Shown here: piece by piece, positions 171-19,778 of the stretch
How the letters are laid out: each line of letters begins with the position of its first letter
How positions within the stretch are numbered: the first letter of the stretch is position 1
Assembly (NCBI GenBank): GCA_025060695.1
Contig: JANXBH010000019.1
Coordinates: forward strand, 1-19,790
Reading direction: 5' to 3'
From: Caldifarciminota bacterium
GTDB taxonomy: Bacteria > Hydrothermota > Hydrothermia > LBFQ01 > DSFT01
Length of the DNA: 19,790 nt
Made by a program: the position numbers and the translations under genes
Notes under the pieces: model-generated
Database searches by the model: none
What the model saw: only the letters and a program-made list of their open reading frames with translations
Told to the model about the DNA's origin: nothing

Positions 171-181
171 CTTTAAAATTT
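171..181 (+). promoter_or_regulatory. Promoter -10-like element CTTTAAAATTT before the epimerase
   Basis: A perfect copy of the element repeated through this window. It ends 5 bases before the GTG at 187. By analogy with the copy in front of the TPP riboswitch, transcription should start at or next to the start codon, giving a leaderless mRNA. I see no clear -35 box about 17 bases upstream. Confidence 0.6.
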
Positions 182-186
182 ACCTC

Positions 187-1155
187 GTGCCAAAAGTTCT
201 CATTACAGGATGTGCAGGGTTTATTGGTTATAAAGTCTGTGAAATATTTTTAAAAAATAAATATGAAGTCATAGGCATAGACAACTTTGACCCATACTAC
301 GATATTTCATTAAAAGAGTATAGAATAGAACAACTAAGAAACTATGAAAATTTTAACTTTATACTATGTGATATTAGAGATAAGGAAGTTTTAAGGAATA
401 TTTTTAGGATATATGAATTTGAGTCAGTAATAAATCTGTCTGCAAAAGCAGGAGTAAGAGCAAGCATAATAAATCCAAGAGAATATTTTGAAGTAAATGT
501 CCTTGGAACATTAAATTTATTAGAATTGATGAGGGAATTTAGAGTAAATAAATTTATACTTGCATCTACATCTTCAATTTATGCGGGGCACAATCCCCCC
601 TTTAGTGAGGAATTAAAGTGTGATGAAATGATTTCTCCCTATGCAGTAAGTAAAAAATCAGCTGAAAATTTAGTATACAACTACTACTATCTTTATGGAA
701 TAAATGCTACTATATTAAGATATTTCACAGTTTATGGACCCGCAGGAAGACCAGATATGAGTATATTTAGATTTTTATATTTTGCAATTAAGGATGAAGA
801 AATTACTGTTTATGGTAATGGGACTCAAAGAAGAAGTTTTAGCTATATAGATGATATTGCATATGGGACATTTTTGGCATATAATCTAAAAAACTTCCAG
901 ATAGTAAATCTTGGAAATGATGAAGATAATTGCGTAAATGAAGTATTAGATATAATTAAAAATTTTCTTTCAAAAGAACTAAAGATAAAATATGAACCCT
1001 TCCACAAGGCTGATATATATGAAACTAAGGCAGATATAACTAAAGCAAAAAAACTATTAAATTGGAAACCGAAGATTAAAATTAAAGAAGGTATAGAAAA
1101 TACTTTAAATTGGTTCTTGGAAAACAGAAAACTTATTGATAAACTAAAGATTTAG
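187..1155 (+). CDS. NAD-dependent nucleotide-sugar epimerase, UDP-glucuronate 4-epimerase-like
   Basis: An extended short-chain dehydrogenase that should epimerise C4 of a UDP-sugar for surface polysaccharide synthesis in the cytoplasm. The Rossmann glycine motif GCAGFIG is at residues 8-14, the catalytic serine lies in STSS (about 127-130), and the Tyr/Lys pair is in YAVSK (Y152, K156). The later segment YGPAGRPDM followed by a basic RRSF-type stretch is characteristic of UDP-glucuronate 4-epimerases, but the substrate is inferred. At 322 residues the length is normal for the family. The start is GTG, chosen because the promoter-like element ends 5 bases upstream and the glycine motif follows directly. 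The gene stands alone and its stop overlaps by 4 bases the stop of the convergent gene at 1152-1871. No other sugar genes are nearby. Confidence 0.85.
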   Translation: MPKVLITGCAGFIGYKVCEIFLKNKYEVIGIDNFDPYYDISLKEYRIEQLRNYENFNFILCDIRDKEVLRNIFRIYEFESVINLSAKAGVRASIINPREYFEVNVLGTLNLLELMREFRVNKFILASTSSIYAGHNPPFSEELKCDEMISPYAVSKKSAENLVYNYYYLYGINATILRYFTVYGPAGRPDMSIFRFLYFAIKDEEITVYGNGTQRRSFSYIDDIAYGTFLAYNLKNFQIVNLGNDEDNCVNEVLDIIKNFLSKELKIKYEPFHKADIYETKADITKAKKLLNWKPKIKIKEGIENTLNWFLENRKLIDKLKI

Positions 1156-1871
1156 TGAATAATTGGAGAGTCCCAAAATAGAAGTTTTCCATCTTTAACG
1201 ATATAAATTTCAGGAAAATCAAGTTCACAAATAAGGTTATATTTATAAACTTTTAATTTTTCATATCTTGGAATACTATCTATACCTTTTGAATATATCC
1301 CATCATTTAGAGGAACCAAAATATCTACCACTTTTGTTTTATACCTCAATTCTTGATATATTTGATTTCTTAAATTGAGAGAAATAAACTTTAATCTAAA
1401 GTCTTTACTTTTTTCTAACTCGTCTAAGATTTTAAGAGCTATTGAGAATTGCTTATTTTTAACGAAATACCTTGCAATTTTGTATCTTAAAATTTCCCTA
1501 TAGAATTTTACTTTTTCAAAGTCATAGTAATGAAAAAAGTTATCGTAGTTCTTATAAAATAACTTGTCCGCAAGATAATTCAGAGAACTTTTTTCTTCCT
1601 TTCCTATAAACTCTCTGTAGAACTTTATCTCAAATAAAGGAATTTTAAAATCACCCTTAGATTTTATGCAAAAATTTAAATAGTCAAGGTATTGATTTTT
1701 TCTTTTTACTATAAAAGTATCTTTTTGGTTTAAGCAAGAAATATACAAAAAATCGTAATTTTTAAATTTGGAAATATCAAAGTATTCAAAAAATTGTAGT
1801 TTAAGACTATTGTCATTTGAAACGTGAACGAAGCAGTTTTCAAATTTCGTAAATAAGAGTAATAGGACCAT
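1152..1871 (-). CDS. Hypothetical protein, 239 residues
   Basis: I do not recognise this protein. It is rich in Lys, Phe, Tyr and Leu, has no convincing signal peptide or membrane helices, and looks soluble and mixed alpha/beta. The middle (about residues 110-170) is helical with regularly spaced aromatic and basic residues that could be TPR-like, and the last 60 residues look like beta strands. It is the last gene of the tatA-dtd unit. Its only nearby ATG (1871) lies 32 bases inside dtd, with no Shine-Dalgarno sequence upstream. The MVLLLLF opening is therefore partly dictated by the overlapping dtd codons for the NDGPIT motif and may not be a real signal. Coding status is supported by length and by tight packing with dtd. 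Confidence 0.6.
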   Translation of the reverse strand: MVLLLLFTKFENCFVHVSNDNSLKLQFFEYFDISKFKNYDFLYISCLNQKDTFIVKRKNQYLDYLNFCIKSKGDFKIPLFEIKFYREFIGKEEKSSLNYLADKLFYKNYDNFFHYYDFEKVKFYREILRYKIARYFVKNKQFSIALKILDELEKSKDFRLKFISLNLRNQIYQELRYKTKVVDILVPLNDGIYSKGIDSIPRYEKLKVYKYNLICELDFPEIYIVKDGKLLFWDSPIIH

Positions 1872-2271
1872 CGTTTATTATTTCAATTTCCATATAAGAT
1901 TGAAACTCACCAAACTTTACATGCAAATATTCCTTTAGGAAATTGGTCTTTAAGATTTCAAAAAATCTTCTTGCTTTTTCAACCTCCATAGCTTTATCGA
2001 ACGATGGTCTATTCCCTTTTGAAATATTCCCCGAAAGCGTAAAGTTTGGCACAATCAATATTTCGCCATTTATATCACTCAAAGAAATATTCATTTTACC
2101 ATTTTCATCTTCAAATATTCTAAGATTTATTAATTTTTTTATAAATTTTTTAATTTTTTCCTCATCGTCATCTTTTTCAAAACCTATAAGAACAACTAAT
2201 CCTTTGTTTATGTCAGTATTATTAAGATTTAATATCCTTGCCCTCTTTACCCTCTGAATTACCGCCTTCAT
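1840..2271 (-). CDS. dtd: D-aminoacyl-tRNA deacylase
   Basis: Hydrolyses D-amino acids (and misattached glycine) from tRNA in the cytoplasm, a proofreading step of translation. The N-terminus [11 protein letters not shown] is the family's typical opening, which supports the ATG at 2271. The C-terminal motif NDGPIT (Gly-Pro placed into the active site of the partner subunit) is present, as is the KGNRPSF segment. At 143 residues the length is usual. The other signature, normally SQFTL, reads PNFTL here, so the usual Ser and Gln are replaced. The start lies 50 bases inside tatA and the end overlaps the next gene by 32 bases, so the three genes should share one mRNA from the promoter at 2406-2416. 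Family assignment is firm; whether specificity is altered is open. Confidence 0.9.
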
Positions 2272-2401
2272 CTTTTGCTGCTTTTCTAAATTCCTTTACC
2301 GCATCACCTAGTCCTCTTGCAAGCTTTGGCAATTTATCAGCTCCGAAGAGTATGAGAATGATTATGAGAATTATAATTAATTCTTGAAAACCAAAAGGCA
2401 T
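2222..2401 (-). CDS. tatA: Sec-independent translocase subunit TatA/E
   Basis: A 59-residue protein too short for many ORF callers. It starts [20 protein letters not shown], a short N-terminal membrane helix with the family's polar Glu near its start and FG at its end, then an amphipathic helix ([18 protein letters not shown]) and a short charged tail. TatA multimers form the pore that passes folded proteins with twin-arginine signals across the inner membrane. No tatC is in the window. The ATG at 2401 follows the promoter element by 4 bases, so the mRNA is probably leaderless. The last 50 bases overlap the start of dtd in another frame. The tail is slightly shorter than usual, which may reflect that overlap. 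Confidence 0.88.
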
Positions 2402-2405
2402 AAAA

Positions 2406-2416
2406 AAATTTTAAAG
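2406..2416 (-). promoter_or_regulatory. Promoter -10-like element CTTTAAAATTT before tatA
   Basis: A perfect copy on the minus strand, 4 bases before the tatA ATG and fitting between the mnmE stop and tatA. It should start a separate leaderless transcript for tatA-dtd-hypothetical even though mnmE lies only 16 bases upstream. Confidence 0.6.
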
Positions 2417-2417
2417 C

Positions 2418-3731
2418 TTACTTACCAATACAAAAATCTCTAAAAACTCTATTTAAAATTTCCTCTGGTAAGTCTTCTATACCTAATAGTCTTGATAGTG
2501 AATTTACTACTAATCTAATATGATGTGAAATGATATCAAGTGGCTCAAATTTTAGATTTAAGACTTCAATCAATTCATTGTATGCATATTGCAATGTCTC
2601 GTATTCACTTCTTGAAAAGTAGTATTCTGCACTTATTTCACTTATCGCTTTGTTATATAAGGTATTTTTTAACTCTTCAAATCCAAAGTTTTCATATACT
2701 GAAAGATATATAGGCTTATAGCCCTCTATGTTTGGTCTTGATATTTCTGACTTGTTTATAACTAAAATAAGCTTCTCATTTGGTATTCTTTCCAAGAGTT
2801 CTAATTCATATGTCTCAATTTTTTCCGCTGATAAGACAAAAATTATTATATCTGAAAATTTTGTTAAATTAAGACTTTTTTCTATTCCTATTTTTTCTAT
2901 GATATCCTGTGCTTCTCTAATACCTGCAGTATCAACTATTCTAAATGTTATACCATCTATAACTAAGTATTCCGATATATAGTCCCTCGTAGTTCCAGGA
3001 ATTTCTGAGACTATTGCCCTTTCATATCCAAGTAGTTTATTAAATATAGATGACTTTCCGACATTCGCTTTTCCTATTATTACTACATTTATTCCCTGTG
3101 ATACTTTCTCCATACTTGCGGAATTTTTTAACATGTCTTCAAGCATATTTAAGATTTTTTTAATTCTAAAAAAGACTTCTTCCTTTGAAATCTCAGGTAC
3201 ATCTTCTTCAAAATCAATTCTCGCTTCAATTTCTTTTAATAAGTCCAGTAAACTTTCTCTTAAATCTTCTAATTTTCTAGACAACACTCCATCCATTCTT
3301 GACCTAAGAGAATATATTGCACTTTCACTCTTCGCATTTATAATTTCGTTTATAGTAGAAGATTGAATGAGGTCCAACTTTCCGTTTAAAAATGCTCTCT
3401 TTGTAAATTCTCCCGGCTCAGCTTGTCTTGCTCCAAGTTCTACTATTTCTCTTAATATTAACTTTGGAATAATTAGACCTCCATGGCAAAATATCTCTAA
3501 CATATCTTCACCAGTATAACTTTTAGGAGATTTATAGTAAACAGCAATTACATCATCTATAACTTTACCATTGTTATTATAGAACTTCAAATATGTAGCA
3601 TATCTGTTTTTCAATTTTCTTCTAAAAACCTTCTCTATAATACTTAAAACTAATGGACCACTAACTCTAATTACACTTATAGCAGAAACACCATATCCAC
3701 TACTAATTGCAACTATTGTATCACTTAACAT
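2418..3731 (-). CDS. mnmE: tRNA modification GTPase MnmE (TrmE)
   Basis: With MnmG it installs the 5-carboxymethylaminomethyl group on the wobble uridine of certain tRNAs, using GTP and folate. The order is an N-terminal folate-binding domain beginning near DTIVAISSG, a helical domain, and an inserted G domain with G1 GKANVGKSS, G2 TTRD, G3 DTAGIRE and G4 NKSE. The end is FCIGK, whose cysteine is the conserved functional C-terminal signature. I chose ATG 3731 (437 residues) over an upstream TTG at 3740, because MLSDTIVAI matches the usual start of the family. Either start overlaps the end of jag. Gene order yidC-jag-mnmE is the classic arrangement near the origin in many bacteria; mnmG is not here. 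Confidence 0.95.
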   Translation of the reverse strand: MLSDTIVAISSGYGVSAISVIRVSGPLVLSIIEKVFRRKLKNRYATYLKFYNNNGKVIDDVIAVYYKSPKSYTGEDMLEIFCHGGLIIPKLILREIVELGARQAEPGEFTKRAFLNGKLDLIQSSTINEIINAKSESAIYSLRSRMDGVLSRKLEDLRESLLDLLKEIEARIDFEEDVPEISKEEVFFRIKKILNMLEDMLKNSASMEKVSQGINVVIIGKANVGKSSIFNKLLGYERAIVSEIPGTTRDYISEYLVIDGITFRIVDTAGIREAQDIIEKIGIEKSLNLTKFSDIIIFVLSAEKIETYELELLERIPNEKLILVINKSEISRPNIEGYKPIYLSVYENFGFEELKNTLYNKAISEISAEYYFSRSEYETLQYAYNELIEVLNLKFEPLDIISHHIRLVVNSLSRLLGIEDLPEEILNRVFRDFCIGK

Positions 3732-4317
3732 TCGGAACAACTACTAATCTCATATTTTTACCTCTTCCAACTCTTTCTATTCTAATTCCCTCCATTTTAC
3801 TTAGTTTTGAAATTACAATTCTCCTCTCGTAGTTATTTAAAGGATCCAATGTATATTCAAGCTTATTTTCTATCGCAAGTTTAGCAGTGGCTATTGCTTT
3901 ATTTACTAAGTACTCTTCCCTTTTCTTTTTATATCCATTTATATCAAAAATAAATCTAAGTTTTGCTCCAAATTTCCTTTTAAATATCAATTTCAAAAGG
4001 TAATTTAGCTCTTCTAATGTCTTTCCATTCTTACCTATCAATACTTTATCCATTCCCTTAGTTTTTATGTTTATATACAGAGTACTTTTGCTTTCAGGAT
4101 ATATAGTAATTTTCCCGTCAGTTCCGATTTTTTGAAAAAATTCATTTAGAAACTCCTCAATATCTTCTAATTCTTTAAATTTCTTATATACCCTTACTAT
4201 TATTGGTTCTCTTTTTAAAACTACATATCTTACATCACCAATATTAGCATTTAACTTTGCAAGGGCATTTTTCACAGCTTTTTCTACTGTCGTTGCTTCC
4301 TCGTCAACAAATTCCAT
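3721..4317 (-). CDS. jag: Jag/KhpB-type RNA-binding protein (Jag-N, KH, degenerate R3H)
   Basis: A single-stranded nucleic-acid-binding protein normally encoded after yidC (also called SpoIIIJ-associated or KhpB/EloR). Residues 1-50 form the Jag N-terminal domain (ATTVEKAVKNAL). A KH domain follows with the GxxG loop IGKNGKTLEEL at about 93-103. The C-terminal region from about 158 matches R3H (LDPLNNYERRIVISKL, then a closing VVVP strand). The R3H signature histidine is replaced: family members read ERRI(I/V)H where this protein reads ERRIVI. The start has a strong Shine-Dalgarno AAAGGAGG 10 bases upstream, unlike the leaderless first genes. It lies one base from the yidC stop and overlaps mnmE. 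Confidence 0.88.
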   Translation of the reverse strand: MEFVDEEATTVEKAVKNALAKLNANIGDVRYVVLKREPIIVRVYKKFKELEDIEEFLNEFFQKIGTDGKITIYPESKSTLYINIKTKGMDKVLIGKNGKTLEELNYLLKLIFKRKFGAKLRFIFDINGYKKKREEYLVNKAIATAKLAIENKLEYTLDPLNNYERRIVISKLSKMEGIRIERVGRGKNMRLVVVPNVK

Positions 4318-4318
4318 A

Positions 4319-5671
4319 CTAATTACCTCCTTTTAAAAAAGACTTAAATATAAATTGCTCTAAGATACTTATTAGACTATATGTCAACCAGTATAAAACC
4401 AAACCAGACGGCAATGTCAAGAATATAAGTAAAAACAATACTGACATCATTATACCTATTATTTTTGCGTTTTTATCGCTTGAAGGATGCAATATGGTGT
4501 TTACTAAGCTAATTAGGCTTGTTAAAACTGGTAAGATGTAGTAGGGATCTTTTGATGATAGGTCTTTTATCCATAGGATAAATTGCGCATTTTTGAAATC
4601 TATAGAAGTCACTAAGACTTGATATATTGCAAAGAATATAGGAAGTTGAATAAGCAGAGGTAAGCATCCGCTAAAGGGGTTAACTTTCTCTTGTTGATAT
4701 ATTCTCAGAATCTCCTGCTGAAGTTTTTGTGGGTCATCTTTATAAATAACTTGAAGTTTTTGAATTTCTGGTTGAATTTTTGAAAGTTTTTTCATAGTTT
4801 TATAGGTTGAATAGGTAAGAGGTGAAAAGATAAGTTTTATTAGAATAGAAAATATGATTATCACAAAACCATAGTTATGGATTACGTAATTTATTGCTCT
4901 AAATGAGTAAAATGTTAATTGGCTAAATGGAGCTACTAAGAAAAAGCCCCAATCGTAGATAGAACCAAGCTTTTTATCTACTCTTTTTAGTATATCTGGA
5001 TCTATAGGACCGATGTAAAATTTAAAGTTATTCCTTGTTTTTCCCTCAAAAATTACTCTACTATCGTAAAGAAAGCTTTTTATATTTGATACACTATCAA
5101 GTATAACAAAGGCAAAATAGTGGCTTCTAGTACCAGAAAAATACGTACTTGCTAATTGGTATGGCTTTTCAAACAGCTTACTCTCGGAGATATTATGCCA
5201 CTTATTTTCATAATAAATAAATGAGGAATACTTTCTTTCATAGTCATCTTTAGAGGGTGTGAATAGTCCGTATGAAATAATATCGTTTTTTGTTGAATAG
5301 ACTTGGACTTGGTAGTTATCATAGAATGTATAAATTATAGTATCTTCCTCTGATGTAAGAATCACTTCATTTTCTCTTACTGTACTATTAAATACTTTGT
5401 CCTTTAAATCTTTAAATATGAATAGTGGATAATTACCGAGAATTTCTTGTTTATATTTTTTTGTATAGAACTGCTTTATAAATCCTCCTTTCTTTGAAAT
5501 CTCTACTTTATATAGACTATTTTCGTAGGTTAATATGCTTTCAGCTACAGGAACTTCAAGTTTTATACCTAATTGAGTTTTTGTTTGATATGGCTTACTT
5601 GGGAATAAGATTATCCATAGAAAGTATATAATAAAAGCAATCAGTAAGTAAATAAAAAATCTATTACTCAC
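4319..5671 (-). CDS. yidC: Membrane protein insertase YidC
   Basis: Inserts and folds membrane proteins in the inner membrane, alone or with SecYEG. An N-terminal membrane helix (about 4-22) is followed by a periplasmic beta-rich domain (about 35-235) and the conserved five-helix insertase region (about 240-445). The amphipathic and cytoplasmic hairpin region includes [13 protein letters not shown], followed by [16 protein letters not shown] and the closing helix LPSGLVLYW. At 450 residues it is on the short side for Gram-negative YidC because the periplasmic domain is compact. The positive residue in the hydrophilic groove, Arg in E. coli, appears to be Lys279 in [12 protein letters not shown]. 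The presence of a periplasmic domain points to a diderm bacterium. Its ATG overlaps the yidD stop (ATGA), which indicates coupled translation. Confidence 0.95.
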
Positions 5672-5874
5672 GGATAATCTATGCCTCCCTTTGAAAATGG
5701 ATTACATCTTAAAACTCTATATATTGCTTTTAATAGACCTTTAAGTATTCCGTATTTCTTGATAGATAAAATTGCATAATCTGAGCATGTAGGATAAAAC
5801 CTACAACTATTTGGCAAAACCGGAGAAATTACCAATTTATATAGCTTAATTATGTCTATTAAAAGATTTTTCAT
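5668..5874 (-). CDS. yidD: Membrane protein insertion efficiency factor YidD
   Basis: A small membrane-associated protein that assists YidC-dependent insertion. The 68 residues contain the family core: [20 protein letters not shown] (Pro plus two conserved Cys), an amphipathic helix [15 protein letters not shown] with a third Cys, and the terminal GGxDxP signature seen as GGIDYP. The ATG follows the rpmH stop with no gap and there is no room for rnpA, which usually sits between rpmH and yidD. The end overlaps yidC in an ATGA junction. Confidence 0.95.
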
Positions 5875-6009
5875 TTATACAGCTAATCTCTTTCTACCTT
5901 TTTGTCTTCTTCTTTTTAAGATTTTCCTACCTGATTTTGTCTTCATTCTTGCTCTAAATCCATGAGTTCTTTTTCTTTTAATTCTTGAAGGTTGATAAGT
6001 TCTTTTCAT
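5875..6009 (-). CDS. rpmH: 50S ribosomal protein L34
   Basis: A 44-residue basic protein beginning [18 protein letters not shown] with the typical GFRARM and GRKIL segments and ending KRLAV, which is the L34 pattern throughout. It is a late-assembling large-subunit protein. The ATG at 6009 lies 7 bases after the promoter element, so the mRNA has at most a few untranslated bases. It is the first gene of rpmH-yidD-yidC-jag-mnmE. The usual neighbour rnpA is absent: the rpmH stop is directly followed by the yidD ATG. Confidence 0.96.
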
Positions 6010-6016
6010 AGTGTTG

Positions 6017-6027
6017 AAATTTTAAAG
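6017..6027 (-). promoter_or_regulatory. Promoter -10-like element CTTTAAAATTT before rpmH
   Basis: A perfect copy, 7 bases upstream of the rpmH ATG and 19 bases downstream of the terminator hairpin of the preceding lipoprotein gene. It probably drives the whole rpmH-yidD-yidC-jag-mnmE unit. Confidence 0.65.
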
Positions 6028-6046
6028 CAAATATTAAGATTATAAG

Positions 6047-6068
6047 AAAGAGGGGAGTCCCCCTCTTT
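6047..6068 (-). terminator. Hairpin terminator of the lipoprotein gene
   Basis: A perfect 9-base-pair stem (AAAGAGGGG / CCCCTCTTT) with a 4-base loop, beginning within the stop codon of the lipoprotein gene. On the minus strand it is followed by CTTATAATCTT, a weak T-rich tail. It separates this gene from the rpmH promoter and would also fold on the opposite strand. Confidence 0.7.
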
Positions 6069-7006
6069 TATTGACAAGAAAAGCTCTTTACAAATTCTTC
6101 TTTTTTACCTGGTAAAAATAGTACAATTTTTATGGTTCCTTCCTTTATCGCCGGTGCATCGCTATTAGGACATTTTCCTATTTTTAAGGTATCAAGAGGT
6201 TCAATTTGCATATTTACTTCTAAACCTGAGCAAGTTCTTAAAGTTCCTTTCCCTATTGGCCAAGTTTTAATTATATTATTGCCTATTGTATCACCCGGAT
6301 GCCAATCTAATGCTTGGTCTAAAAACACGTATGTAGTTTCGTTTAAAGTAATAGATCTACAGGAATTGACTTCTTTTGCATATCTAAGACTGCGAATTAA
6401 TTTATACTTCTTTGGTGCTATTGAATCCATAGTTAGTGAACCAGTTTGTACACTCTTGCTTTCCTTTACTAACTCATTATTTCTCATCACTTTAATATAA
6501 AATATAAATGAATCCCCCCAAGAAACTGCAAATCTAAATGGATTATTATCGGTTGTGTTATCGTTATGATTTAGTGTTCCTAATATTGTATAGGTTATGA
6601 TATACTTAGTATTGTTTTCATTAGTCTTAAGAAGCGTATCAGTCCTATTATTGCAAGTAAACTTTATAGTCGTATTTCTATATACCCTATCCCTATCGTC
6701 ATCTGTTGTATCGTTTGGTTGATAAGTAGCACAACCTTTCTTTCTTAAGTCAATACCTAATCCTGTATCTATCTGAGTCCTTATATCTGGCTTTAGAGAG
6801 TATACGAAATATCCAAAATATGGTCCTCTTCTTTGAAATGGAGAGCCAGGATCTATAATGAAATTAGGAGAGTTCTCTACTACTTCACCTGCAGATTGCT
6901 GAGCAAAGTTTATATCTTCCTGTGCAACCTCTTCTATCTTCTCAGCCCTTCTACACCCGAGTGATATAACAGCCAACATGGCTGCTATATATATCAGCCT
7001 TTTCAT
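6068..7006 (-). CDS. Unknown lipoprotein, 312 residues
   Basis: The N-terminus MKRLIYIAAMLAVISLGC is a clear lipoprotein signal with the lipid-attachment cysteine at residue 18. A low-complexity Glu/Ala/Gln-rich linker (about 20-45) follows, then a soluble, beta-rich domain of about 260 residues. That domain is rich in Asn, Thr and Asp and carries several Cys that could form disulfides (for example in KKGCATY, KFTCNN, VNSCRS, RTCSG, GKCPN and the terminal SFSCQ). I do not recognise the family. The ATG overlaps the end of the GAF-ANTAR gene in an ATGA junction and is preceded by AGGAGG, so the two are probably translated together. A terminator hairpin follows directly. Confidence 0.75.
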   Translation of the reverse strand: MKRLIYIAAMLAVISLGCRRAEKIEEVAQEDINFAQQSAGEVVENSPNFIIDPGSPFQRRGPYFGYFVYSLKPDIRTQIDTGLGIDLRKKGCATYQPNDTTDDDRDRVYRNTTIKFTCNNRTDTLLKTNENNTKYIITYTILGTLNHNDNTTDNNPFRFAVSWGDSFIFYIKVMRNNELVKESKSVQTGSLTMDSIAPKKYKLIRSLRYAKEVNSCRSITLNETTYVFLDQALDWHPGDTIGNNIIKTWPIGKGTLRTCSGLEVNMQIEPLDTLKIGKCPNSDAPAIKEGTIKIVLFLPGKKEEFVKSFSCQ

Positions 7007-7944
7007 CTTTTTACCTCCTTTAGTATAACTATGGATTCTGAAATTTCCTTAATTGTTTTCCTACTGTCCATAGCTTTTTTCCTTATATAGTTATATGCTT
7101 CTTCTTCAGTCATACCTTGTTTCATAAGTATGCCCTTTGCTCTCTCAACTAACTTTCTTTCTTCAATTTCACTCTTCAATTTTCTATTCTTTAAAATTAA
7201 ATCCGCATGATTTAACAATAATTTAATAGCTTTACTTTGTTCTTCTGTTAGAAAATTATTTGCCAAGATGACAGAAAAATATTGAGACTTTATATCCGCC
7301 CTGATTTTTGTATTTTCTACAACTTTAACTGGAACTTTCAACATGCTAAAAATTATGCTTTCCAATTTTTCAAAAATGTTTTCATTTTCTTCTATTATAC
7401 TATCAAGTATATTTTCTAAAATTTCCGCTTTTCTTCTGTATTGCTCGTATAGCCACACTTTTTCTAATGCTCCACTTATTATTTCAGAAAACATCTTCAA
7501 TATCATTTTTTCAGACTTAGTATATTTGTGTTCGTTTATATGCTGAACATTTATCACACCAACAAGTTTATCCCTAAATACTATGGGGACAGATATTATA
7601 GCCTCATAAGTATCTTCTTTCAAATTTTTAAAAACTTTAAATCTTCTATCTTTATAGGCCTTTTTACTAATTGAAATTATCCTCCTTTCTTTCCCTACTA
7701 AACCTGCTAGTCCTTCACCCATTTGCAGTTTAATTCTACCTATTGCTCCGAGGTTTGAAGAAGAACCCATTAGTATTAGTTCTCCACTATCTTCTTCATA
7801 CAAATAGATAAAACAACTATCGCCTTTTATAAGTTCGCACACGGACGAAGCAATAAAGTTTAAGATTTCATTTAATTTTTCAGTTTTATTTAAAACTTCC
7901 AAAACTTTTAATATTACTTCAAATAATTTAAACGAATTATCCAT
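7003..7944 (-). CDS. GAF-domain sensor with C-terminal ANTAR RNA-binding domain
   Basis: A one-component or partner-controlled regulator. Residues about 20-165 are a GAF domain with typical segments (FIYLYEEDSGELIL, GEGLAGLVG, ISVPIVFRDKLVGVINVQH). A linker with coiled-coil character covers about 165-260. The ANTAR domain spans about 258-310 and includes the hallmark ERAKGILMKQGMTEEEAY. ANTAR proteins bind two-hairpin RNA elements and prevent transcription termination. No phosphoacceptor receiver domain is present, so the GAF domain is the likely input, perhaps for a small molecule or redox signal. The ATG follows the promoter element by 4 bases. The downstream partner is the unknown lipoprotein. 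I did not find an obvious ANTAR target RNA in the window. Confidence 0.85.
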   Translation of the reverse strand: MDNSFKLFEVILKVLEVLNKTEKLNEILNFIASSVCELIKGDSCFIYLYEEDSGELILMGSSSNLGAIGRIKLQMGEGLAGLVGKERRIISISKKAYKDRRFKVFKNLKEDTYEAIISVPIVFRDKLVGVINVQHINEHKYTKSEKMILKMFSEIISGALEKVWLYEQYRRKAEILENILDSIIEENENIFEKLESIIFSMLKVPVKVVENTKIRADIKSQYFSVILANNFLTEEQSKAIKLLLNHADLILKNRKLKSEIEERKLVERAKGILMKQGMTEEEAYNYIRKKAMDSRKTIKEISESIVILKEVKR

Positions 7945-7948
7945 ATTA

Positions 7949-7959
7949 AAATTTTAAAG
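7949..7959 (-). promoter_or_regulatory. Promoter -10-like element CTTTAAAATTT before the GAF-ANTAR gene
   Basis: A perfect copy 4 bases upstream of the ATG at 7944. It overlaps the stop codon of sdhB (7954-7956), showing how tightly units are packed. Confidence 0.6.
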
Positions 7960-8784: not shown

Positions 8785-8787
8785 TTC

Positions 8788-9129: not shown

Positions 9130-9133
9130 AATT

Positions 9134-9589: not shown

Positions 9590-9595
9590 AACGTC

Positions 9596-9606
9596 AAATT
9601 TTAAAG
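9596..9606 (-). promoter_or_regulatory. Promoter -10-like element CTTTAAAATTT before sdhC
   Basis: A perfect copy 6 bases upstream of the sdhC ATG, within the 24-base gap after herA. It gives the sdh genes their own transcript. Confidence 0.62.
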
Positions 9607-9613
9607 CTCATAA

Positions 9614-12771: not shown

Positions 12772-12775
12772 AGCA

Positions 12776-12786
12776 TAATTTTAAAG
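12776..12786 (-). promoter_or_regulatory. Promoter -10-like element CTTTAAAATTA before hutU
   Basis: Differs from the consensus only in the last base. It lies 4 bases upstream of the hutU ATG and is divergent from the tmRNA promoter copy at 12814-12824; the two elements are 27 bases apart. Confidence 0.6.
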
Positions 12787-12813
12787 TTCAAATTGAAAAT
12801 ATTAATTTTTATA

Positions 12814-12824
12814 CTTTAAAATTT
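12814..12824 (+). promoter_or_regulatory. Promoter -10-like element CTTTAAAATTT before tmRNA
   Basis: A perfect copy with TTGAAA at a -35-like distance (18 bases from TAAAAT). Transcription from it would begin near 12828-12832, leaving a 5' leader of about 20 bases before the mature tmRNA start at 12851. Such leaders are normally removed by RNase P. A second possibility is that TATATG at 12841 acts as the -10 box, with a start directly at the mature end. Confidence 0.55.
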
Positions 12825-12850
12825 TAAAACACTACCTTGCTATATGGATT

Positions 12851-13186: not shown

Positions 13187-13212
13187 TAATTTATAAAAAA
13201 GGGAGGTTATAT

Positions 13213-13617: not shown

Positions 13618-13622
13618 TAGTA

Positions 13623-13697
13623 GCCCTCATCGTCTAGTCCGGTCAAGGACGCTAGGTTCTCAACCTAGAAACCCGGGTTCAAATCCCGGTGGGGGCA
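13623..13697 (+). tRNA. tRNA-Glu (anticodon CTC)
   Basis: The cloverleaf can be drawn fully. The acceptor stem is GCCCTCA / TGGGGGC with one G-T pair. The D arm includes AGTCCGGTCAAGGAC. The anticodon arm is CTAGG-TTCTCAA-CCTAG with CTC as anticodon. The T arm is CCGGG-TTCAAAT-CCCGG, and the discriminator A is at 13697. CCA is not encoded. The next gene, rpmE, begins only two bases after the discriminator. Confidence 0.95.
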
Positions 13698-13699
13698 TT

Positions 13700-13912
13700 A
13701 TGAAGAAAGGGATACATCCTCAATATTATGAAGATGCTATAATTGTTTGTGCTTGTGGAAATAAAATTAAAGTTGGTTCAACGAAAAAGGAAATACATGT
13801 AGAAATTTGCTCAGCATGCCACCCTTTCTACACTGGTCAAAAGACACAAATAGTAGACACAGGGGGAAGAATAAAGAAATTTAGAGAAAAATATGGACTT
13901 AAGGAGGAGTAG
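13700..13912 (+). CDS. rpmE: 50S ribosomal protein L31 (zinc-binding type)
   Basis: A 70-residue protein beginning [13 protein letters not shown] with the four zinc-ligand cysteines of the C+ form (CAC near residues 17-19 and CSAC near 37-40), and FYTGQ and [10 protein letters not shown] as in bacterial L31. The ATG begins two bases after the tRNA-Glu discriminator base, with no separate Shine-Dalgarno; the only G-rich stretch is the tRNA acceptor stem. RNase Z cleavage of the tRNA precursor would leave an mRNA starting UUAUG. Its end overlaps the next gene by 20 bases. Confidence 0.95.
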
Positions 13913-14336
13913 CTTATTACTAATATTTTTAGTTCAAAATTGTTCATCTATAAAAGTTAACTTTTCTTTAGCATCTCCAGAAGAATTCCAGCCTGTAGCA
14001 ATTACTCAATTTATAAAAAGAGAAATTATTGATACTACGGGTGAAAATAAAACTTCAGAATATAGCTGGAAAGCAGAGGCAGTAGAAGGAGCATTTACCT
14101 ATGGCTATAGAATACAAGTAATAGCAACTTCAAACAAAAAACAAGTTGAAAAACTAAAAGAAGAAGTCCTAAAAAAAGGTTTTAATTACCCAATTTACGT
14201 AAAATACGTCCCACCAATGTATAGACTAAGGATAGGAGACTTTAAAACTCAAGAAGAAGCACAAAAGGCTTTAAATCAACTTAAAAGTGCAGGATATAAG
14301 GATGCATTTATAACAGAGGATTTTATAAACAAGTGA
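13893..14336 (+). CDS. SPOR-domain exported protein, probable lipoprotein
   Basis: A 147-residue protein. The N-terminus [17 protein letters not shown] looks like a short export signal, and C17 could be a lipid anchor, although VQN is an atypical lipobox. A linker rich in Thr, Ser and Glu spans about 25-68. The C-terminal half (about 70-144) is a SPOR domain: two repeats of strand-helix-strand, [21 protein letters not shown] and [25 protein letters not shown] domains bind denuded peptidoglycan glycan at division sites. The ATG at 13893 lies 20 bases inside rpmE. An AAGGAGG at 13901-13907 inside the reading frame has no ATG/GTG/TTG codon following it in frame, so I keep the upstream ATG. Confidence 0.85.
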
Positions 14337-14340
14337 AAAT

Positions 14341-14607
14341 TTGTTAATTTTCTCTTTCTTATCTTTTTTTGAAACAAAAGATAGATGGATTTCATCTGAT
14401 AAGTTTAAACATCTTTTTATTTCATATGTAATGTACTCATTTTCATACGATTATATAAATAGAAAAAATTCAGCTTATATATCCTTTTCAATCGGTCTTT
14501 TTAAGGAACTTTACGATGGATTTAGAAAAGAAAAATTTAGCTATAAAGATATGTTTTGGAATATTCTTGGTATTTATCTTGGATTTGTGATAAATACAAA
14601 GGAGTAG
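14341..14607 (+). CDS. DUF2279/YfiM-like small membrane or periplasmic protein
   Basis: An 88-residue protein starting with TTG four bases after the SPOR gene. It opens with a hydrophobic segment, then WISSDKFKHLFISYVMY, KELYDGFRKEKFSYKDMFWNILGIYLGF. This is the pattern of the DUF2279/YfiM family: DKxKHF, then KExYD, then FSxxDxxxNxxG. Its Asp, Lys and His residues are conserved, but the function is not known to me. The TTG start is uncertain, since no Shine-Dalgarno is evident and no ATG is available before the conserved part. The stop (14605-14607) is shared with the beginning of the uvrA promoter element. It is likely cotranscribed with rpmE and the SPOR gene. Confidence 0.75.
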   Translation: MLIFSFLSFFETKDRWISSDKFKHLFISYVMYSFSYDYINRKNSAYISFSIGLFKELYDGFRKEKFSYKDMFWNILGIYLGFVINTKE

Positions 14608-14617
14608 ATTAAAATTT
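14607..14617 (+). promoter_or_regulatory. Promoter -10-like element GATTAAAATTT before uvrA
   Basis: Core TTAAAATTT with an altered 5' end, 11 bases upstream of the uvrA ATG. This is the largest gap in the set and would allow a very short leader. A TTGTGA lies about 19 bases upstream of TAAAAT and could be a weak -35. Confidence 0.5.
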
Positions 14618-14628
14618 CAAACTAATAG

Positions 14629-17442
14629 ATGGAGAAAAAATATATTATTATAAGAGGAGCAAGGCAGAATAATTTGAAAAATATTAATTTAAAAATTCCA
14701 AGAGGTAAATTAGTAGTCATTACAGGAGTTTCAGGAAGTGGAAAATCTTCTTTAGCTTTTGATACAATATATGCTGAAGGCCAAAGAAGATATGTAGAAA
14801 GTTTAAGCACTTATGCAAGACAGTTCTTAGGAATGATGGAAAAACCAGATGTAGATTTTATAGAAGGACTATCTCCTGCCATTGCAATAGAACAGAGAAA
14901 AATACAAAAAAATCCCCGCTCTACCATAGCAACAACTACCGAAATATACGATTATCTAAGGTTACTATTTTCAAGAGTAGGGGTACCGTATTGTCCTGAA
15001 CACAACATTCCATTAGAAAAATGGAGTATAGACGAAATTGTTAACAGAATATTAAAATTTCCAGTAGGAACTAAAATATCAATACTCTCACCCGTTATTA
15101 GAGGTAAAAAAGGAGAATATAGAAAACTATTTGAAAAGTATCAAAAGATGGGTTTTAATAAGTTTAAAATAGATGAAGAACTATATGTAGATGAAATACC
15201 CGAGCTAGATAAAAATAAAAAGCACGATATCTCTGTTATAGTAGATAGAATTATAGTAAGAGAAGAGATAAAGCAGAGAGTATTTGAGAGTGTAGAATTA
15301 GCTCTAAGAGAAGCTCAGGGAGTAGTTAAAGTAGAATATAGTGAAGGTGAAGAAGTAAAGGAACTTACATTCTCGCAGCACTTAGCTTGTCCAAGGTGCG
15401 AATTTTCACTAAGTGAGTTAGAGCCAAGATTATTCTCCTTTAATAGCCCATACGGTGCTTGTCCGGAGTGTCATGGTCTTGGCTATAAAATAGAAATTGA
15501 CCCATCATTACTAATAAAAAGAGAAAACCTCAGCATATTAGAAGGGGCAATTGAAACTATTGGAGAACCGAATTTTAGAATAAAGCAATATCTTACCGAT
15601 TTAGCTAATATATATGGTGTTAGCCTTAAAGAACCCTGGAAAAATTTACCACAAGACTTTAAGAATGCGGTATTATACGGTACTGATAAATACTTATATT
15701 GGGAGGGCGTAATTCCATATTTGTATAGAAGATATAATGAAACAGATTCAGAATATGTAAAAGAAGAGATTGAAAAATATATGATATACATAGTATGTCC
15801 TACTTGTCAAGGCTCAAGACTAAAGAAAGAAGCTCTTTCAGTTAAAATAAATGGAATAAATATTTGGGAATTTACAAAGATGAGCGTAAGAAGAGCCTTT
15901 GAATTTTTAGATAATTTAAAATTTGAGGACAATAGGTCAAAAATTATTGCTCAGAAGATAGTTAAAGAAATTAAAAATAGATTAAGGTTCTTAATGGAAG
16001 TAGGCTTGGATTACTTAACTTTAGATAGGACTACCGAAAGCTTATCAGGAGGAGAAGAACAAAGAGTTAGGCTTGCAACACAAATAGGCTCAGGACTAAC
16101 AGGAGTTCTTTATGTCCTTGACGAACCAAGTATAGGACTTCATCCAAGAGACACACAAAGACTTATAGATACATTAAAACATCTGAGAGACTTAGGAAAT
16201 ACTGTTATAGTTGTAGAGCATGATGAGAATACTATTAGACAAGCAGATTATGTTATTGACCTTGGACCTAATGCTGGTGAAAATGGTGGATATGTAGTAG
16301 CACAGGGAAAACCAGAAGAATTAGAGAAATATATAGAAACATCACTAACTGCGAAGTATCTTTTTGGAAAATTGTCAATCAATATTCCAGAAAAGAGAAG
16401 GAAACCGTCTAAAAACTATCTAAAAATATACGGCGCAAGAGGAAATAATTTAAAAAATATAAATGTTGAAATACCGTTGGGATTATTTGTAGTATTTACA
16501 GGAGTATCAGGAAGTGGAAAATCATCGCTTGTAATTGATACTTTATACAAAGCTCTAAAGAAGAATCTATATAATTCAAAAGAACAACCTTTACCATACG
16601 ATAGAATAGAAGGTATTGAATATATTGATAAAGTAATAAATGTAGATCAAGCACCAATAGGAAGGACACCAAGAAGCAATCCTGCGACTTATACAGGAGT
16701 ATTTACCGATATTAGGGAAGTTTTTGCTATGACAAGAGATGCGAGAATGAGAGGTTATGATAAGGGTAGATTTTCGTTTAACAAAGAAGAGGGCAGATGC
16801 AGTGTTTGTGCAGGAGAAGGATATTTGAAAGTAGAGATGTATTTTCTACCTGATATTTTCGTGCCTTGTGAAGTTTGTAAGGGTAAAAGATATAATTCTG
16901 AAACTTTAGAAGTAAAATATAAGGGGAAAAATATAGCTGAAGTATTAGATATGTCAGTTTCAGAAGCACTAAAGTTTTTTGAAGACATTCCTAAGATTTA
17001 TAGAAAATTAAAATTACTTGAAGATGTAGGACTTGGGTATATTAAACTTGGACAGCCTGCAACAACTCTCTCAGGAGGCGAAGCACAAAGAATAAAACTA
17101 GCAAAAGAACTAAACAGAGTTGATACAGGAAAAACTCTATATATTTTAGATGAGCCAACTACAGGTTTACATTTTGATGATGTTAAAAAACTTATTGATG
17201 TATTACAAAGACTTGTAGATAGGGGAAATACTGTTATCGTAATAGAACACAACTTAGATGTTATAAAGTGTGCAGATTGGGTTATTGACCTTGGACCAGA
17301 AGGTGGTGAAAATGGTGGTTATATCGTCGCGCAAGGAACACCTGAAGAAACAGCGGAAAGTAATAATTCTTGGACTGGTGTTTATTTAAGGAATATACTA
17401 AAAGAAGAAAAGAAAAAAGTAGTTATGAATTTTGTGCCTTAA
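14629..17442 (+). CDS. uvrA: Excinuclease ABC subunit A
   Basis: Damage-recognition ATPase of nucleotide excision repair; acts as a dimer with UvrB on DNA. It has 937 residues, the usual length. The first ATPase half carries Walker [10 protein letters not shown] near residue 33 and a zinc module CPRC...CPEC around 250-282. The signature SLSGGEEQR and Walker [15 protein letters not shown] follow. The second half has Walker [10 protein letters not shown], a second zinc module CSVC...[13 protein letters not shown] and [13 protein letters not shown]. No frameshift or truncation is seen. It has its own promoter element upstream, and its stop codon overlaps the promoter of the thi4 riboswitch. uvrB and uvrC are not in the window. 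Confidence 0.98.
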
Positions 17443-17447
17443 AATTT
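17437..17447 (+). promoter_or_regulatory. Promoter -10-like element CCTTAAAATTT before the TPP riboswitch
   Basis: Overlaps the uvrA stop codon. The P1 helix of the riboswitch begins at 17452, so the RNA must start between 17448 and 17452, 3-7 bases after TAAAAT (17440-17445). This gives independent calibration that the element is a -10 box. Confidence 0.72.
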
Positions 17448-17451
17448 CTTA

Positions 17452-17552
17452 TCGCACCGGGGGAGCTGGGGCAACCTGGCTGAGAAACCCTCATAATGCG
17501 AGGGTGACCCTTTGAACCTGAACCGGGTAATACCGGCGTAGGGAAGGTGTGA
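17452..17552 (+). promoter_or_regulatory. TPP (thiamine pyrophosphate) riboswitch
   Basis: The aptamer is unmistakable: GGGGAGC, CTGAGA, P3 AACCCTC/GAGGGT, then ACCTGAACCGGGTAATACCGGCGTAGGGAA. P1 pairs TCGCACC (17452-17458) with GGTGTGA (17546-17552), including one G-U pair. Downstream, GGAAGG (17542-17547) and TGAGAG (17550-17555) can pair with CTCTCA (17564-17569) and CCTTCC (17574-17579), which would compete with P1. No U-run follows, so control is probably at translation of thi4: CCTT may pair with the Shine-Dalgarno AAGGAGG (17605-17611) when TPP is bound. Confidence 0.95.
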
Positions 17553-17619
17553 GAGATTATTTACTCTCATAGTCCTTCCTAATATTCCCCTGGTGAATAA
17601 TTAAAAGGAGGTAAAAGTT

Positions 17620-18378
17620 ATGGAAAAATTAGTTACTAAAGCTATGTTGGATAAATTCTATCAGGATCTATCAGAAGCTATCTACGCGGATGTGTTCGTT
17701 ATTGGAGCTGGACCATCAGGGCTTGTCTGTGCAAGAGAACTTTCAAAAAACGGTCTAAAAGTTTTCGTTATAGAGCAAAACAATTACCTTGGTGGTGGTT
17801 TTTGGATCGGTGGATACTATATGAATACCATTACTATAAGAGAACCAGCGAATAAACTACTTGATGAGATTGGTATTCCATATGAAAAGGTAAGTGAAGG
17901 ACTATTTATTTCTTATGGACCCATTGCCTGTTCAAAATTAATCTATGAAACCGCAATAAGTGGTACAAAATTTCTACAACTTACATATCTTGATGATTTA
18001 GTAATTAAGCATAATAGAGTAAGCGGTGTAGTAGTAAATTGGTCTCCTACAAGAGCATTACCAAGAGCTATAACATGTGTTGACCCAATAGCATTAGAAG
18101 GCAAATTTGTAGTAGACGCATCAGGTCACGATGCAATTGCTGTAAAGAAGTTATCACAAAGAAAACTTTTAGAAATAAAAGGACTTGGACCACTTAATAT
18201 TGAAGTTAGTGAGGAGAATGTAATAAAATATACGAGCGAAGTTTATCCAGGTCTTGTAGTATGTGGCATGGCTGTTGCTGAAACATATGGATTAAATAGA
18301 ATGGGACCAACTTTTGGGTCTATGCTACTTTCAGGTAAAAAAGCAAGTGAAATTATCCTTAAACAATTAAAAAATTAG
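17620..18378 (+). CDS. thi4: Thiamine thiazole synthase, Thi4 family
   Basis: Makes the thiazole phosphate half of thiamine from NAD+, glycine and a sulfur source. It has 252 residues. The Rossmann motif VIGAGPSG lies at about 27-34, the EQN acidic end of the second strand follows, GGGFWIGG lies at 58-65, and GHDA at 169-172. The position before VDP that is His in methanogen enzymes (which use free sulfide) and Cys in yeast and plants (a suicide sulfur donor) is Cys153 here. A strong Shine-Dalgarno AAGGAGG lies 8 bases before the ATG, and a TPP riboswitch precedes it, which supports a thiamine role. tenA follows by 10 bases. Confidence 0.93.
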   Translation: MEKLVTKAMLDKFYQDLSEAIYADVFVIGAGPSGLVCARELSKNGLKVFVIEQNNYLGGGFWIGGYYMNTITIREPANKLLDEIGIPYEKVSEGLFISYGPIACSKLIYETAISGTKFLQLTYLDDLVIKHNRVSGVVVNWSPTRALPRAITCVDPIALEGKFVVDASGHDAIAVKKLSQRKLLEIKGLGPLNIEVSEENVIKYTSEVYPGLVVCGMAVAETYGLNRMGPTFGSMLLSGKKASEIILKQLKN

Positions 18379-18388
18379 GAGTTTAGTT

Positions 18389-19048
18389 ATGAAAACGCAA
18401 ACTTTATGGGCTAATATAAGTGGTATCTTTGAGAAAATACTACAGCATCCATTTATAACAGGTTTAGTAGATGGAAGTTTAGATGAAAGAAAGTTTAGGT
18501 TTTATGTAATTCAAGATGCGATTTATCTTAAATATTTTTCAAGAGGCTTGGCTATACTTGGAACTAAGTTCAGTGAAGATGATATCTACCTATCTTTTTT
18601 AGAAGATGCCAAAACTGCTATAATGGTAGAAAGGTCTTTACATGAAAGCTTTTTTAAGGTGTGGAAACTTAGTTATGAAGATGTAAATAGAACACCCATC
18701 GCACCGAATAATTTATTATATGTAAGCTATCTAATGAATATTGTATATGAAAGACCATATTATGAAAGCCTTGGAGCATTTTTACCCTGCTATTGGATTT
18801 ACCTTGAGGTTGGGAAACACCTTGAAAAATTCGGCTCAAAAAACGAACTATATCAAAAATGGATAAATACTTATGCAAGCAAAGAATTTGAAACTGTAGT
18901 AAGGAGAGTTTTAGATATATCCGAGAATGTCTTGAAAAAGTTAAATGATGAACAATTTGAAATGGTAAAGCATCACTTTGTAATGACATCAAAATTTGAA
19001 TACATGTTCTGGGATATGGGCTATAAGGAGCAAAGCTGGGATGTTTAG
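18389..19048 (+). CDS. tenA: TenA family thiaminase II / aminopyrimidine aminohydrolase
   Basis: Hydrolyses thiamine breakdown products such as aminomethyl-HMP so that the pyrimidine can be reused. It has 219 residues, the usual length, and is all-helical. Residues matching the B. subtilis catalytic set are D43 (in IQDAIYLKYF), C134 (in FLPCYWIYLE), Y138 and E204 (before MFWDMGY), so it belongs to the cysteine-type TenA group. It follows thi4 under the same TPP riboswitch and has TTAGGAG upstream of the ATG. Together the two genes supply the thiazole moiety and salvage the pyrimidine; thiC, thiD and thiE are not in the window. Confidence 0.94.
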   Translation: MKTQTLWANISGIFEKILQHPFITGLVDGSLDERKFRFYVIQDAIYLKYFSRGLAILGTKFSEDDIYLSFLEDAKTAIMVERSLHESFFKVWKLSYEDVNRTPIAPNNLLYVSYLMNIVYERPYYESLGAFLPCYWIYLEVGKHLEKFGSKNELYQKWINTYASKEFETVVRRVLDISENVLKKLNDEQFEMVKHHFVMTSKFEYMFWDMGYKEQSWDV

Positions 19049-19049
19049 A

Positions 19050-19763
19050 TTATCTTAAGATTTTTATAATTTTTTCCTTATCGTCGTATTTAATACTTAA
19101 AAAACCTATACCATGTAGTTTAAATTCCCTTTCTCCTTGTAAATAGCCATCAAAAACCCTATACCTCCTTCCGTAAATGCTATAGAAATCAATTTTAACT
19201 CTTACTTTATTCAGAGTCTTAATGTGTATTGAATTACTATTCTGAGTTATAGTTATTTCATCATTTTCTGCCAAATTAACAACACTGAGAATACTATCCT
19301 TTATTGCATATATTGAATCTCCAGAAATTGCTCCATTATTGTTTGCTACATTACCAACCAAATATACATATACTTTTCCAGAATAATTACTTGGAGCAAT
19401 CCATCTTATTTTAAATACAAAACTATCGTTCGAAACTGGAGCATTTTGATGAGTAGCATAACCTCCTGCACTTATTCTTGTATTTGGCCCTATAGTTTGG
19501 AAAGAACCTATAGGATTATTCTGAACATCTTTTATTATCATTTGAAATCCAAACCTTCTATTTCCATGACCTTTTACTACTATGTTTAAATCGTATGAAT
19601 TTCCCGGAACATAAGAACTTGGCTTATTGAAATATACCGAACCACTACCACCAGGATTTAAAGGAGCAGCACTATGACAAATAGTGCAATATCTATTACT
19701 TGGTGGATCCCCGCAATAACTATCAGGTGGATACGTAGAATTAGATATTAAAAGAAAAATCAT
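19050..19763 (-). CDS. Exported Reeler/choice-of-anchor-type protein with CxxCH motif and T9SS-like C-terminal domain
   Basis: A 237-residue protein. A short hydrophobic N-terminus (MIFLLIS) is followed by SYCGDPPSNRYCTICHSAAP, where CTICH is a haem-binding type CxxCH. A beta-sandwich (about 40-165, with GNSYDLNIVVKGHGNRRFGFQ) resembles the Reeler or choice-of-anchor V domains that follow such CxxCH segments in Bacteroidota. The last 60 residues (VKIDFYSIYGRRYRVFDG, then GIGFLSIKYDDKEKIIKILR) look like a type A sorting domain of the type IX secretion system. The signal peptide is unusually short, but an in-frame stop lies in the promoter element just upstream, so the ATG at 19763 is fixed. 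The gene is convergent with tenA with one base between their stop codons. Confidence 0.75.
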   Translation of the reverse strand: MIFLLISNSTYPPDSYCGDPPSNRYCTICHSAAPLNPGGSGSVYFNKPSSYVPGNSYDLNIVVKGHGNRRFGFQMIIKDVQNNPIGSFQTIGPNTRISAGGYATHQNAPVSNDSFVFKIRWIAPSNYSGKVYVYLVGNVANNNGAISGDSIYAIKDSILSVVNLAENDEITITQNSNSIHIKTLNKVRVKIDFYSIYGRRYRVFDGYLQGEREFKLHGIGFLSIKYDDKEKIIKILR

Positions 19764-19767
19764 ATAA

Positions 19768-19778
19768 AAATTTTAAAC
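19768..19778 (-). promoter_or_regulatory. Promoter -10-like element GTTTAAAATTT at the right edge
   Basis: One mismatch to the consensus at the first base. It lies 4 bases upstream of the ATG at 19763 and contains an in-frame TAA that rules out a longer protein. The -35 region is outside or at the edge of the window. Confidence 0.55.

What the first reader, a model, noticed from the sequence alone, without database searches (positions are those of the whole stretch)
171..19778. A recurring CTTTAAAATTT promoter element that implies leaderless mRNAs
Ten copies were found, at 171-181(+), 2406-2416(-), 6017-6027(-), 7949-7959(-), 9596-9606(-), 12776-12786(-), 12814-12824(+), 14607-14617(+), 17437-17447(+) and 19768-19778(-). 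Six are perfect; the rest keep TTAAAATT. Every copy is oriented toward the gene it precedes and sits only at the head of a transcription unit. In seven of the eight protein-coding units the gap to the start codon is 4-7 bases (11 for uvrA), the distance from a -10 box to +1. The copy before the TPP riboswitch lies 4 bases before P1, showing independently that RNA starts there. This is neither TATAAT nor the Bacteroidota TAnnTTTG type. It suggests a lineage where the first gene of each operon is normally leaderless.
Basis: partly seen in the sequence, partly recalled or inferred. Interest (0 to 1): 0.78.

Follow-up and report, generated by a model that had tools for sequence, protein, structure and literature searches.

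The report
Start-hugging promoters with leaderless messages
In this uncultured bacterium (candidate phylum WOR-3) most transcription units start from one 11-letter promoter placed only a few letters before the start codon, so most first genes are probably read from messages with no leader; known bacteria do this for a minority of genes, and the promoter itself is an unusual variant.

Summary
The finding holds and is broader than claimed. In 375 kb of the same genome, CTTTAAAATTT occurs 99 times (about 5 expected). In 77 cases a called gene's start codon lies 3-11 bases downstream, with a sharp peak at 4-8; others precede tRNA, 16S rRNA, tmRNA or small uncalled genes. The core is TAAAAT, a sigma70-type -10 box one base from TATAAT, inside a longer element (A/G)CTT-TAAAAT-TT(T) with no -35 signal. 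TAAAAT stands 5-11 bases before a start at 79 of 98 divergent unit heads, TATAAT at 1. Shine-Dalgarno motifs are rare at heads (9/98), commoner inside runs (54/216). tRNA genes lie 7 or more bases after the box and RNase P RNA in relatives 6-7, which fixes +1 without start codons; coding leaders are then about 0-4 nt. Two sister families (GC 28-55%) share the layout with C at -15 and no -35; remoter class members show it weakly and regain TTGACA and Shine-Dalgarno. E. coli is negative; Thermus and Deinococcus show far less. Leaderless bacterial genes are known; the near-default use at unit heads, the C-15 element without -35 and the accompanying sigma change (Q446H) appear new. No RNA data were available.

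The parts
171..181 (+). CTTTAAAATTT promoter, exact; gap 5 to GTG 187 of an NAD-dependent epimerase-like gene
2406..2416 (-). exact copy; gap 4 to ATG 2401 of a tatA-like gene
6017..6027 (-). exact copy; gap 7 to ATG 6009 of an rpmH-like gene (rpmH-yidD-yidC-jag-mnmE run, rnpA missing)
7949..7959 (-). exact copy; gap 4 to ATG 7944 of a GAF/ANTAR-like gene; overlaps the end of the upstream sdhB-like gene
9596..9606 (-). exact copy; gap 6 to ATG 9589 of an sdhC-like gene
12776..12786 (-). one-mismatch copy CTTTAAAATTA; gap 4 to ATG 12771 of a urocanate hydratase-like gene
12814..12824 (+). exact copy 26 bases before mature tmRNA (12851); divergent partner of 12776
14607..14617 (+). weak copy GATTAAAATTT (no C at -15); gap 11 to ATG 14629 of uvrA; doubtful member
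17437..17447 (+). one-mismatch copy CCTTAAAATTT; hexamer 17440-17445, so the predicted +1 (about 17452) is the first base of riboswitch P1
17449..17562 (+). TPP riboswitch, a leadered unit that serves as an internal control
   Evidence: RF00059, 76.2 bits
17607..17613 (+). AGGAGGT Shine-Dalgarno (position approximate to a base) before ATG 17620 of the THI4-like gene: this leadered gene has a full SD
   Evidence: read directly from the sequence
19768..19778 (-). one-mismatch copy GTTTAAAATTT; gap 4 to ATG 19763

Best explanation
The element is the primary (sigma70/RpoD-type) promoter of this WOR-3 lineage: a -10 hexamer TAAAAT (about -12 to -7) extended upstream by C-T-T (C at -15) and downstream by T-T(-T), working without a -35 box. 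It is set so that +1 falls 7-8 bases after the hexamer, at or 0-4 nt before the start codon, so the first gene of most units is a leaderless mRNA, presumably started by the 70S ribosome on the 5' AUG/GUG/UUG. Inner genes use Shine-Dalgarno or coupling to the gene before. Shown: position, orientation, specificity for unit heads, absence of a -35 signal, use at tRNA, rRNA, tmRNA and riboswitch units, and spread over two sister families. Inferred: that RpoD reads it, the exact +1, and 70S initiation.
For: Start codons opening 60+ aa ORFs peak at gaps 4-8 after exact copies and are flat elsewhere. TAAAAT at 79/98 divergent heads with gap 5-11, TATAAT at 1; SD 9-11/98 at heads against 54-62/216 inside runs. 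Aligned promoters show C 84-88%, T 89%, T-T after the hexamer and no -35; TTGACA-like matches at spacer 16-18 are no commoner than at wrong spacings. Non-translated units: 16S, tmRNA and TPP, and 23 of 30 tRNA loci, the rest mostly later members of tRNA runs, with a floor of 7 bases from hexamer to tRNA once one spurious second match (L188, true gap 9) is set aside. In three sister genomes RNase P RNA starts 6-7 bases after the hexamer. Heads with TANWAT 6-10 before a start: G000 77%, G001 68%, G006 75%, G008 77%, G004 86% against 11-14% background; E. coli 12% against 6%. Orthologous heads keep the box and short gap while flanks differ. The 16S anti-SD tail is intact, so SD use inside runs is possible.
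Against: No RNA 5' ends for this organism were available. Start codons were chosen from several in-frame candidates; the 11-14% background measures this bias. G002 (same family, GC 51%) shows only 43% with TANWAT (69% with the looser TANNNT). About a fifth of heads lack the element. The pairing of C-15 with sigma Q446H is a single-clade correlation.
Confidence: 0.88

Rival explanations
1. A translation signal: an A/U-rich stretch just upstream of start codons in ordinary leadered mRNAs, bound by ribosomal protein S1, as proposed for some bacterial groups.
For: U-rich stretches before start codons are an accepted alternative reading of such biases (PMC5397173). An S1 homologue of 573 aa is present.
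Against: The same oriented element precedes tRNA, 16S, tmRNA and riboswitch units that have no start codon there. It is specific to unit heads, not to all genes.
Confidence: 0.04
2. An operator half-site or global transcription factor site: close head-to-head copies make an inverted repeat AAATTTTAAAG-N-CTTTAAAATTT.
For: 34 of 49 divergent pairs carry two facing copies, 23 of them with hexamers 5-22 bases apart, and 6 overlap.
Against: Single copies are strictly oriented and placed towards one start codon, spacing between facing copies varies freely, and the aligned promoters show no other conserved element.
Confidence: 0.03
3. An ordinary -10 box in an AT-rich genome, with short but real leaders (5-15 nt) rather than leaderless mRNAs.
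For: The core is a normal sigma70-type hexamer and the exact +1 is not measured.
Against: With +1 at 7-8 after the hexamer, as RNase P RNA, tRNA and riboswitch genes indicate, the observed gaps of 6-10 leave 0-4 nt. Relatives of 54-55% GC (G008, G004) show the same, so AT richness is not the cause.
Confidence: 0.05

Closest known systems
-10 motif adjacent to ORFs in Deinococcus-Thermus (PMC12340547; Zheng et al. 2011, PMC3160421)
   Same: -10 hexamer about 6-7 bp before the start codon, no -35 needed, leaderless mRNAs; RpoD binding and promoter activity were tested there.
   Different: There TANNNT at nearly a third of D. radiodurans ORFs; by one method here 22-24% of heads on D. radiodurans and T. 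thermophilus megaplasmids (background 9-10%) against 69-86% in the WOR-3 order (background 26-44%) with TANNNT, or 43-86% with TANWAT (background 11-14%). No C-15 extension is reported in the passages read.
Extended -10 promoter (TGn-TATAAT)
   Same: Bases upstream of the hexamer stand in for a missing -35 box.
   Different: C at -15 (and C at -18 in the sister family) instead of T-15 G-14; TG found in 0-1 promoters per genome in the order.
Bacteroidota promoter (-7 TAnnTTTG)
   Same: A divergent primary promoter of a bacterial group.
   Different: TAAAAT with A-11, T-7 and a following T run, no TTTG.
Sulfolobus-type organisation: leaderless first genes, SD on inner genes (Tolstrup et al. 2000; content from own knowledge, cited in PMC5397173)
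   Same: Two initiation modes split by position in the operon.
   Different: Here in a bacterium with a sigma70-type -10 box rather than a TATA/BRE promoter.

Membership tests
sigma70-type -10 element | T-12, A-11 and T-7 strongly conserved | tested here: met
   TAAAAT is the top hexamer de novo before heads in G000 (79 against 6 and 8 in control windows) and TAAAAT, TAGAAT, TATAAT in sister genomes
sigma70-type -10 element | +1 about 7 bases downstream | tested here: met
   RNase P RNA starts 6-7 bases after the hexamer in three sister genomes; tRNA floor 7; TPP P1 at 7. Indirect, no 5' ends mapped
sigma70-type -10 element | Bound and used by the primary sigma factor | not testable with these tools
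   RpoD present, regions 2.4, 3.0 and 4.2 mostly conserved
-35/-10 promoter | TTGACA-like -35 at 16-18 bp spacing | tested here: not met
   G000 15/75 at the right spacing against 17-20/75 at wrong ones
Extended -10 (TGn) | T-15 G-14 | tested here: not met
   1/75 in G000, 0 in the other five order genomes
Bacteroidota TAnnTTTG promoter | TTTG at the -7 element | tested here: not met
   consensus TAAAATTT; G 0-2% in the two positions after the hexamer
Leaderless mRNA | 5' UTR absent or under about 5 nt | tested here: inconclusive
   inferred from -10 to start distances; no 5' ends mapped
Leaderless mRNA | No Shine-Dalgarno before the start | tested here: met
   SD at 9/98 heads, while the leadered THI4 unit in the window has AGGAGGT

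The most novel reading that the evidence does not exclude
A whole WOR-3 order runs nearly all transcription, including rRNA and tRNA, from -35-free promoters read through a new kind of extended -10 (C at -15, also C at -18 in one family) by an RpoD altered in region 2.4 (Q446H in 11 of 11, T440I/M in one genus), making leaderless start the default for first genes and allowing back-to-back promoters within a 16-bp palindrome.
Probability: 0.45. Interest if true: 0.75.

Novelty: new variant of a known kind. Interest (0 to 1): 0.6.

Why it matters
Surveys report leaderless transcription in up to about 40% of transcripts in roughly a fifth of bacterial species (PMC9581028), and 46% of genes at the top (PMC3160421). 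Here about 70% of unit heads carry the signature after background is allowed for, an organisation known from archaea such as Sulfolobus (own knowledge), inside a bacterium with an intact anti-SD. Because sister families differ in GC and in the exact box, while remoter class members have -35 boxes and SD, the lineage offers a comparative series for how leaderless, -35-free expression arises. Practically, gene finders that expect an RBS will misplace starts in such genomes.

Tried and rejected
RNase P RNA as a +1 marker in the genome itself failed because none was found in family f1. The exact 11-mer as a phylum marker is misleading: its excess over the reversed control is confined to family f1, although the layout is order-wide. 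Loss of S1 as a companion of leaderless translation was considered and not seen. Loss of the -35-reading residues of sigma was considered and not seen: R584, E585, R588 and Q589 are kept. Literature searches for WOR-3 with leaderless mRNA or with promoters and sigma factors found nothing, in an open-access library only. Searches failed on a search term and gave no result; one search was an empty script.

Full report
WHAT IS THERE. The ten copies are real. Six are exact and four are near matches; seven of eight coding units have gaps of 4-7 bases, and uvrA has 11 with a degenerate box. The window is a complete contig (C10) of a 1.50-Mb, 77-contig genome. By UvrA the nearest named relatives are candidate division WOR-3 bacteria at 62-73% identity, so I call it WOR-3.

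CHANCE AND POSITION. Twenty stretches (375,790 bases, 30% GC) were taken. CTTTAAAATTT occurs 99 times; Markov models of order 1-3 expect 4.4-6.0. Genome-wide it is 352 against 88 for the reversed pattern. Downstream of exact copies, start codons that open ORFs of at least 60 codons number 19, 22, 15, 12 and 7 at gaps 4-8 and 0-5 at other distances. Of the 99, 77 have a start of a called gene at gap 3-11. The other 22 include 16S rRNA, tmRNA, two tRNAs, several genes too short or too near a stretch end for my caller (rpmH in this window, for one), and one leadered gene with GGAGGT; only one is antisense inside a gene.

HEADS AGAINST INNER GENES. I called genes with a codon-usage model and defined heads as genes whose upstream neighbour lies on the other strand, which does not use the motif. 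TAAAAT stands 5-11 bases before a candidate start at 79 of 98 heads and TATAAT at 1; among same-strand genes with a gap of 20 or less it is 34 of 216. Shine-Dalgarno cores show the opposite trend, 9/98 against 54/216. The 16S 3' end keeps GGATCACCTCCTTT. The window holds a natural control: the one unit that must have a leader, the TPP riboswitch unit, has AGGAGGT before its ATG.

ANATOMY. Aligned on TAAAAT, 122 promoters give A/G at -4, C 88% at -3, T 77% and T 89% before the hexamer, and T 98%, T 91%, T 58% after it. No column from -45 to -5 carries more than 0.17 bits. In conventional numbering this is (A/G)-16 C-15 T-14 T-13 [T-12 AAAA T-7] T-6 T-5. TTGACA-like sequences at the canonical spacing are no commoner than at wrong spacings.

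WHERE +1 IS. Four non-translated classes set it. The 16S unit is preceded by CTTTAAAATTT. In 23 of 30 tRNA loci the box precedes the tRNA, 7-17 bases from hexamer to tRNA with one at 22 (L188 matched a second, spurious box; its true distance is 9); the loci without it are mostly later members of tRNA runs. In three sister-family genomes (L154, L155, L156) RNase P RNA begins 6-7 bases after the hexamer. In the window the riboswitch P1, as I pair it, begins 7 bases after the hexamer. With +1 at 7-8, the coding distances of 6-10 mean leaders of about 0-4 nt. Use at non-translated units also speaks against a purely translational signal.

BACK-TO-BACK PROMOTERS. In 34 of 49 divergent pairs both promoters are found; hexamers are 5-22 bases apart in 23 pairs and overlap in 6 as TAAAATTTTA. 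The perfect 16-mer CTTTAAAATTTTAAAG occurs at 7 places; three of these lie within 3-7 bases of tRNA genes listed. Such spacing leaves no room for separate -35 boxes, and facing polymerases should exclude each other (inference).

RELATIVES AND CONTROLS. Heads with TANWAT 6-10 before a start: G000 77%, G001 68% (same genus), G002 43% (same family; 69% with TANNNT), G004 86%, G006 75%, G008 77% (sister family, GC 41-55%); background at other distances 11-14%. Remoter class members: 50, 36, 35 and 36% against 15-25%. E. coli K-12: 12% against 6%. With TANNNT, Thermus 24% and Deinococcus 22% against 10% and 9%. Samples for G004, the class members and the controls are small (14-42 heads). The sister family uses TAAAAT, TAGAAT or TATAAT with C at -15 (24/33 in G006, 29/37 in G008) and C at -18 (27/33, 30/37), and no clear -35. 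In class members G018 (f4) and G022 (f9) TTGACA at spacer 16-18 reappears (6/15 and 6/7). Orthologous heads in G000 and G001 at about 87% protein identity keep box and short gap while the flanks differ.

SIGMA FACTOR. RpoD (541 aa) is a standard primary sigma. Against 19 other sigma sequences of the class (one of them, L306, a secondary sigma), all 11 of the two families carry Q446H in region 2.4; T440 is I in G000 and M in G001 but T in the other nine; V454, listed as invariant in 1002 primary sigmas and near T-15 in the open complex (PMC4593229), is I in all 11 but also in most other class members. The -35 readers R584, E585, R588 and Q589 are intact. Intact -35 readers in groups without a -35 TTG are known (PMC8407463). 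I offer Q446H and C-15 as a testable correlation, not a mechanism shown.

WHAT IS KNOWN. Leaderless genes with a -10-like box about 10 bp upstream are widespread in bacteria, about 20% in Actinobacteria and 40% in Deinococcus-Thermus (PMC3160421); [quoted passage not shown] In Deinococcus the box was shown to act as a promoter without -35 (PMC12340547). In Lactococcus a TG before the box is thought to replace the -35. The WOR-3 case belongs to this kind but differs in extent, in the C-15 element and in serving stable RNA units too. I found no paper on it.

VERDICT. Confirmed and extended: a lineage-wide, -35-free, C-15-extended -10 promoter that most likely makes first genes leaderless. A new variant of a known kind, strong by sequence, still lacking RNA data.

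Noticed in passing
window 5668-6027 and genome-wide: RNase P RNA (RF00010) and rnpA (PF00825) are not found in any of the four family-f1 genomes, while the protein-only RNase P HARP (PF08745) is found in all four; the eight sister-family genomes show the reverse (in G004 the RNA match is below cut-off). In the window rnpA is missing between rpmH and yidD. Only class A RNA was searched.
   Followed up: partly
L167-L196: tRNA 5' leaders are predicted to be only about 0-10 nt, in a lineage that seems to rely on HARP.
   Followed up: partly
window 1-30: A CRISPR repeat (RF01315) at the contig end, with a partial repeat near 70-80: probably the edge of an array lost to assembly.
   Followed up: no
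window 17449-19048: TPP riboswitch followed by a THI4-like thiazole synthase and a TenA-like gene (named by eye, not searched).
   Followed up: no
window 7189-7199: CTTTAAAATTA on the + strand inside a minus-strand gene with no gene behind it; decoy or antisense start.
   Followed up: no
L046 around 13376 (minus strand): An exact copy followed by GGAGGTG and then an ATG about 25 bases on: a leadered gene using the same promoter.
   Followed up: no
G000 C44:71943, C66:6070, C77:59387: Perfect palindromes CTTTAAAATTTTAAAG within 3-7 bases of tRNA genes, apparently one element serving both strands.
   Followed up: partly
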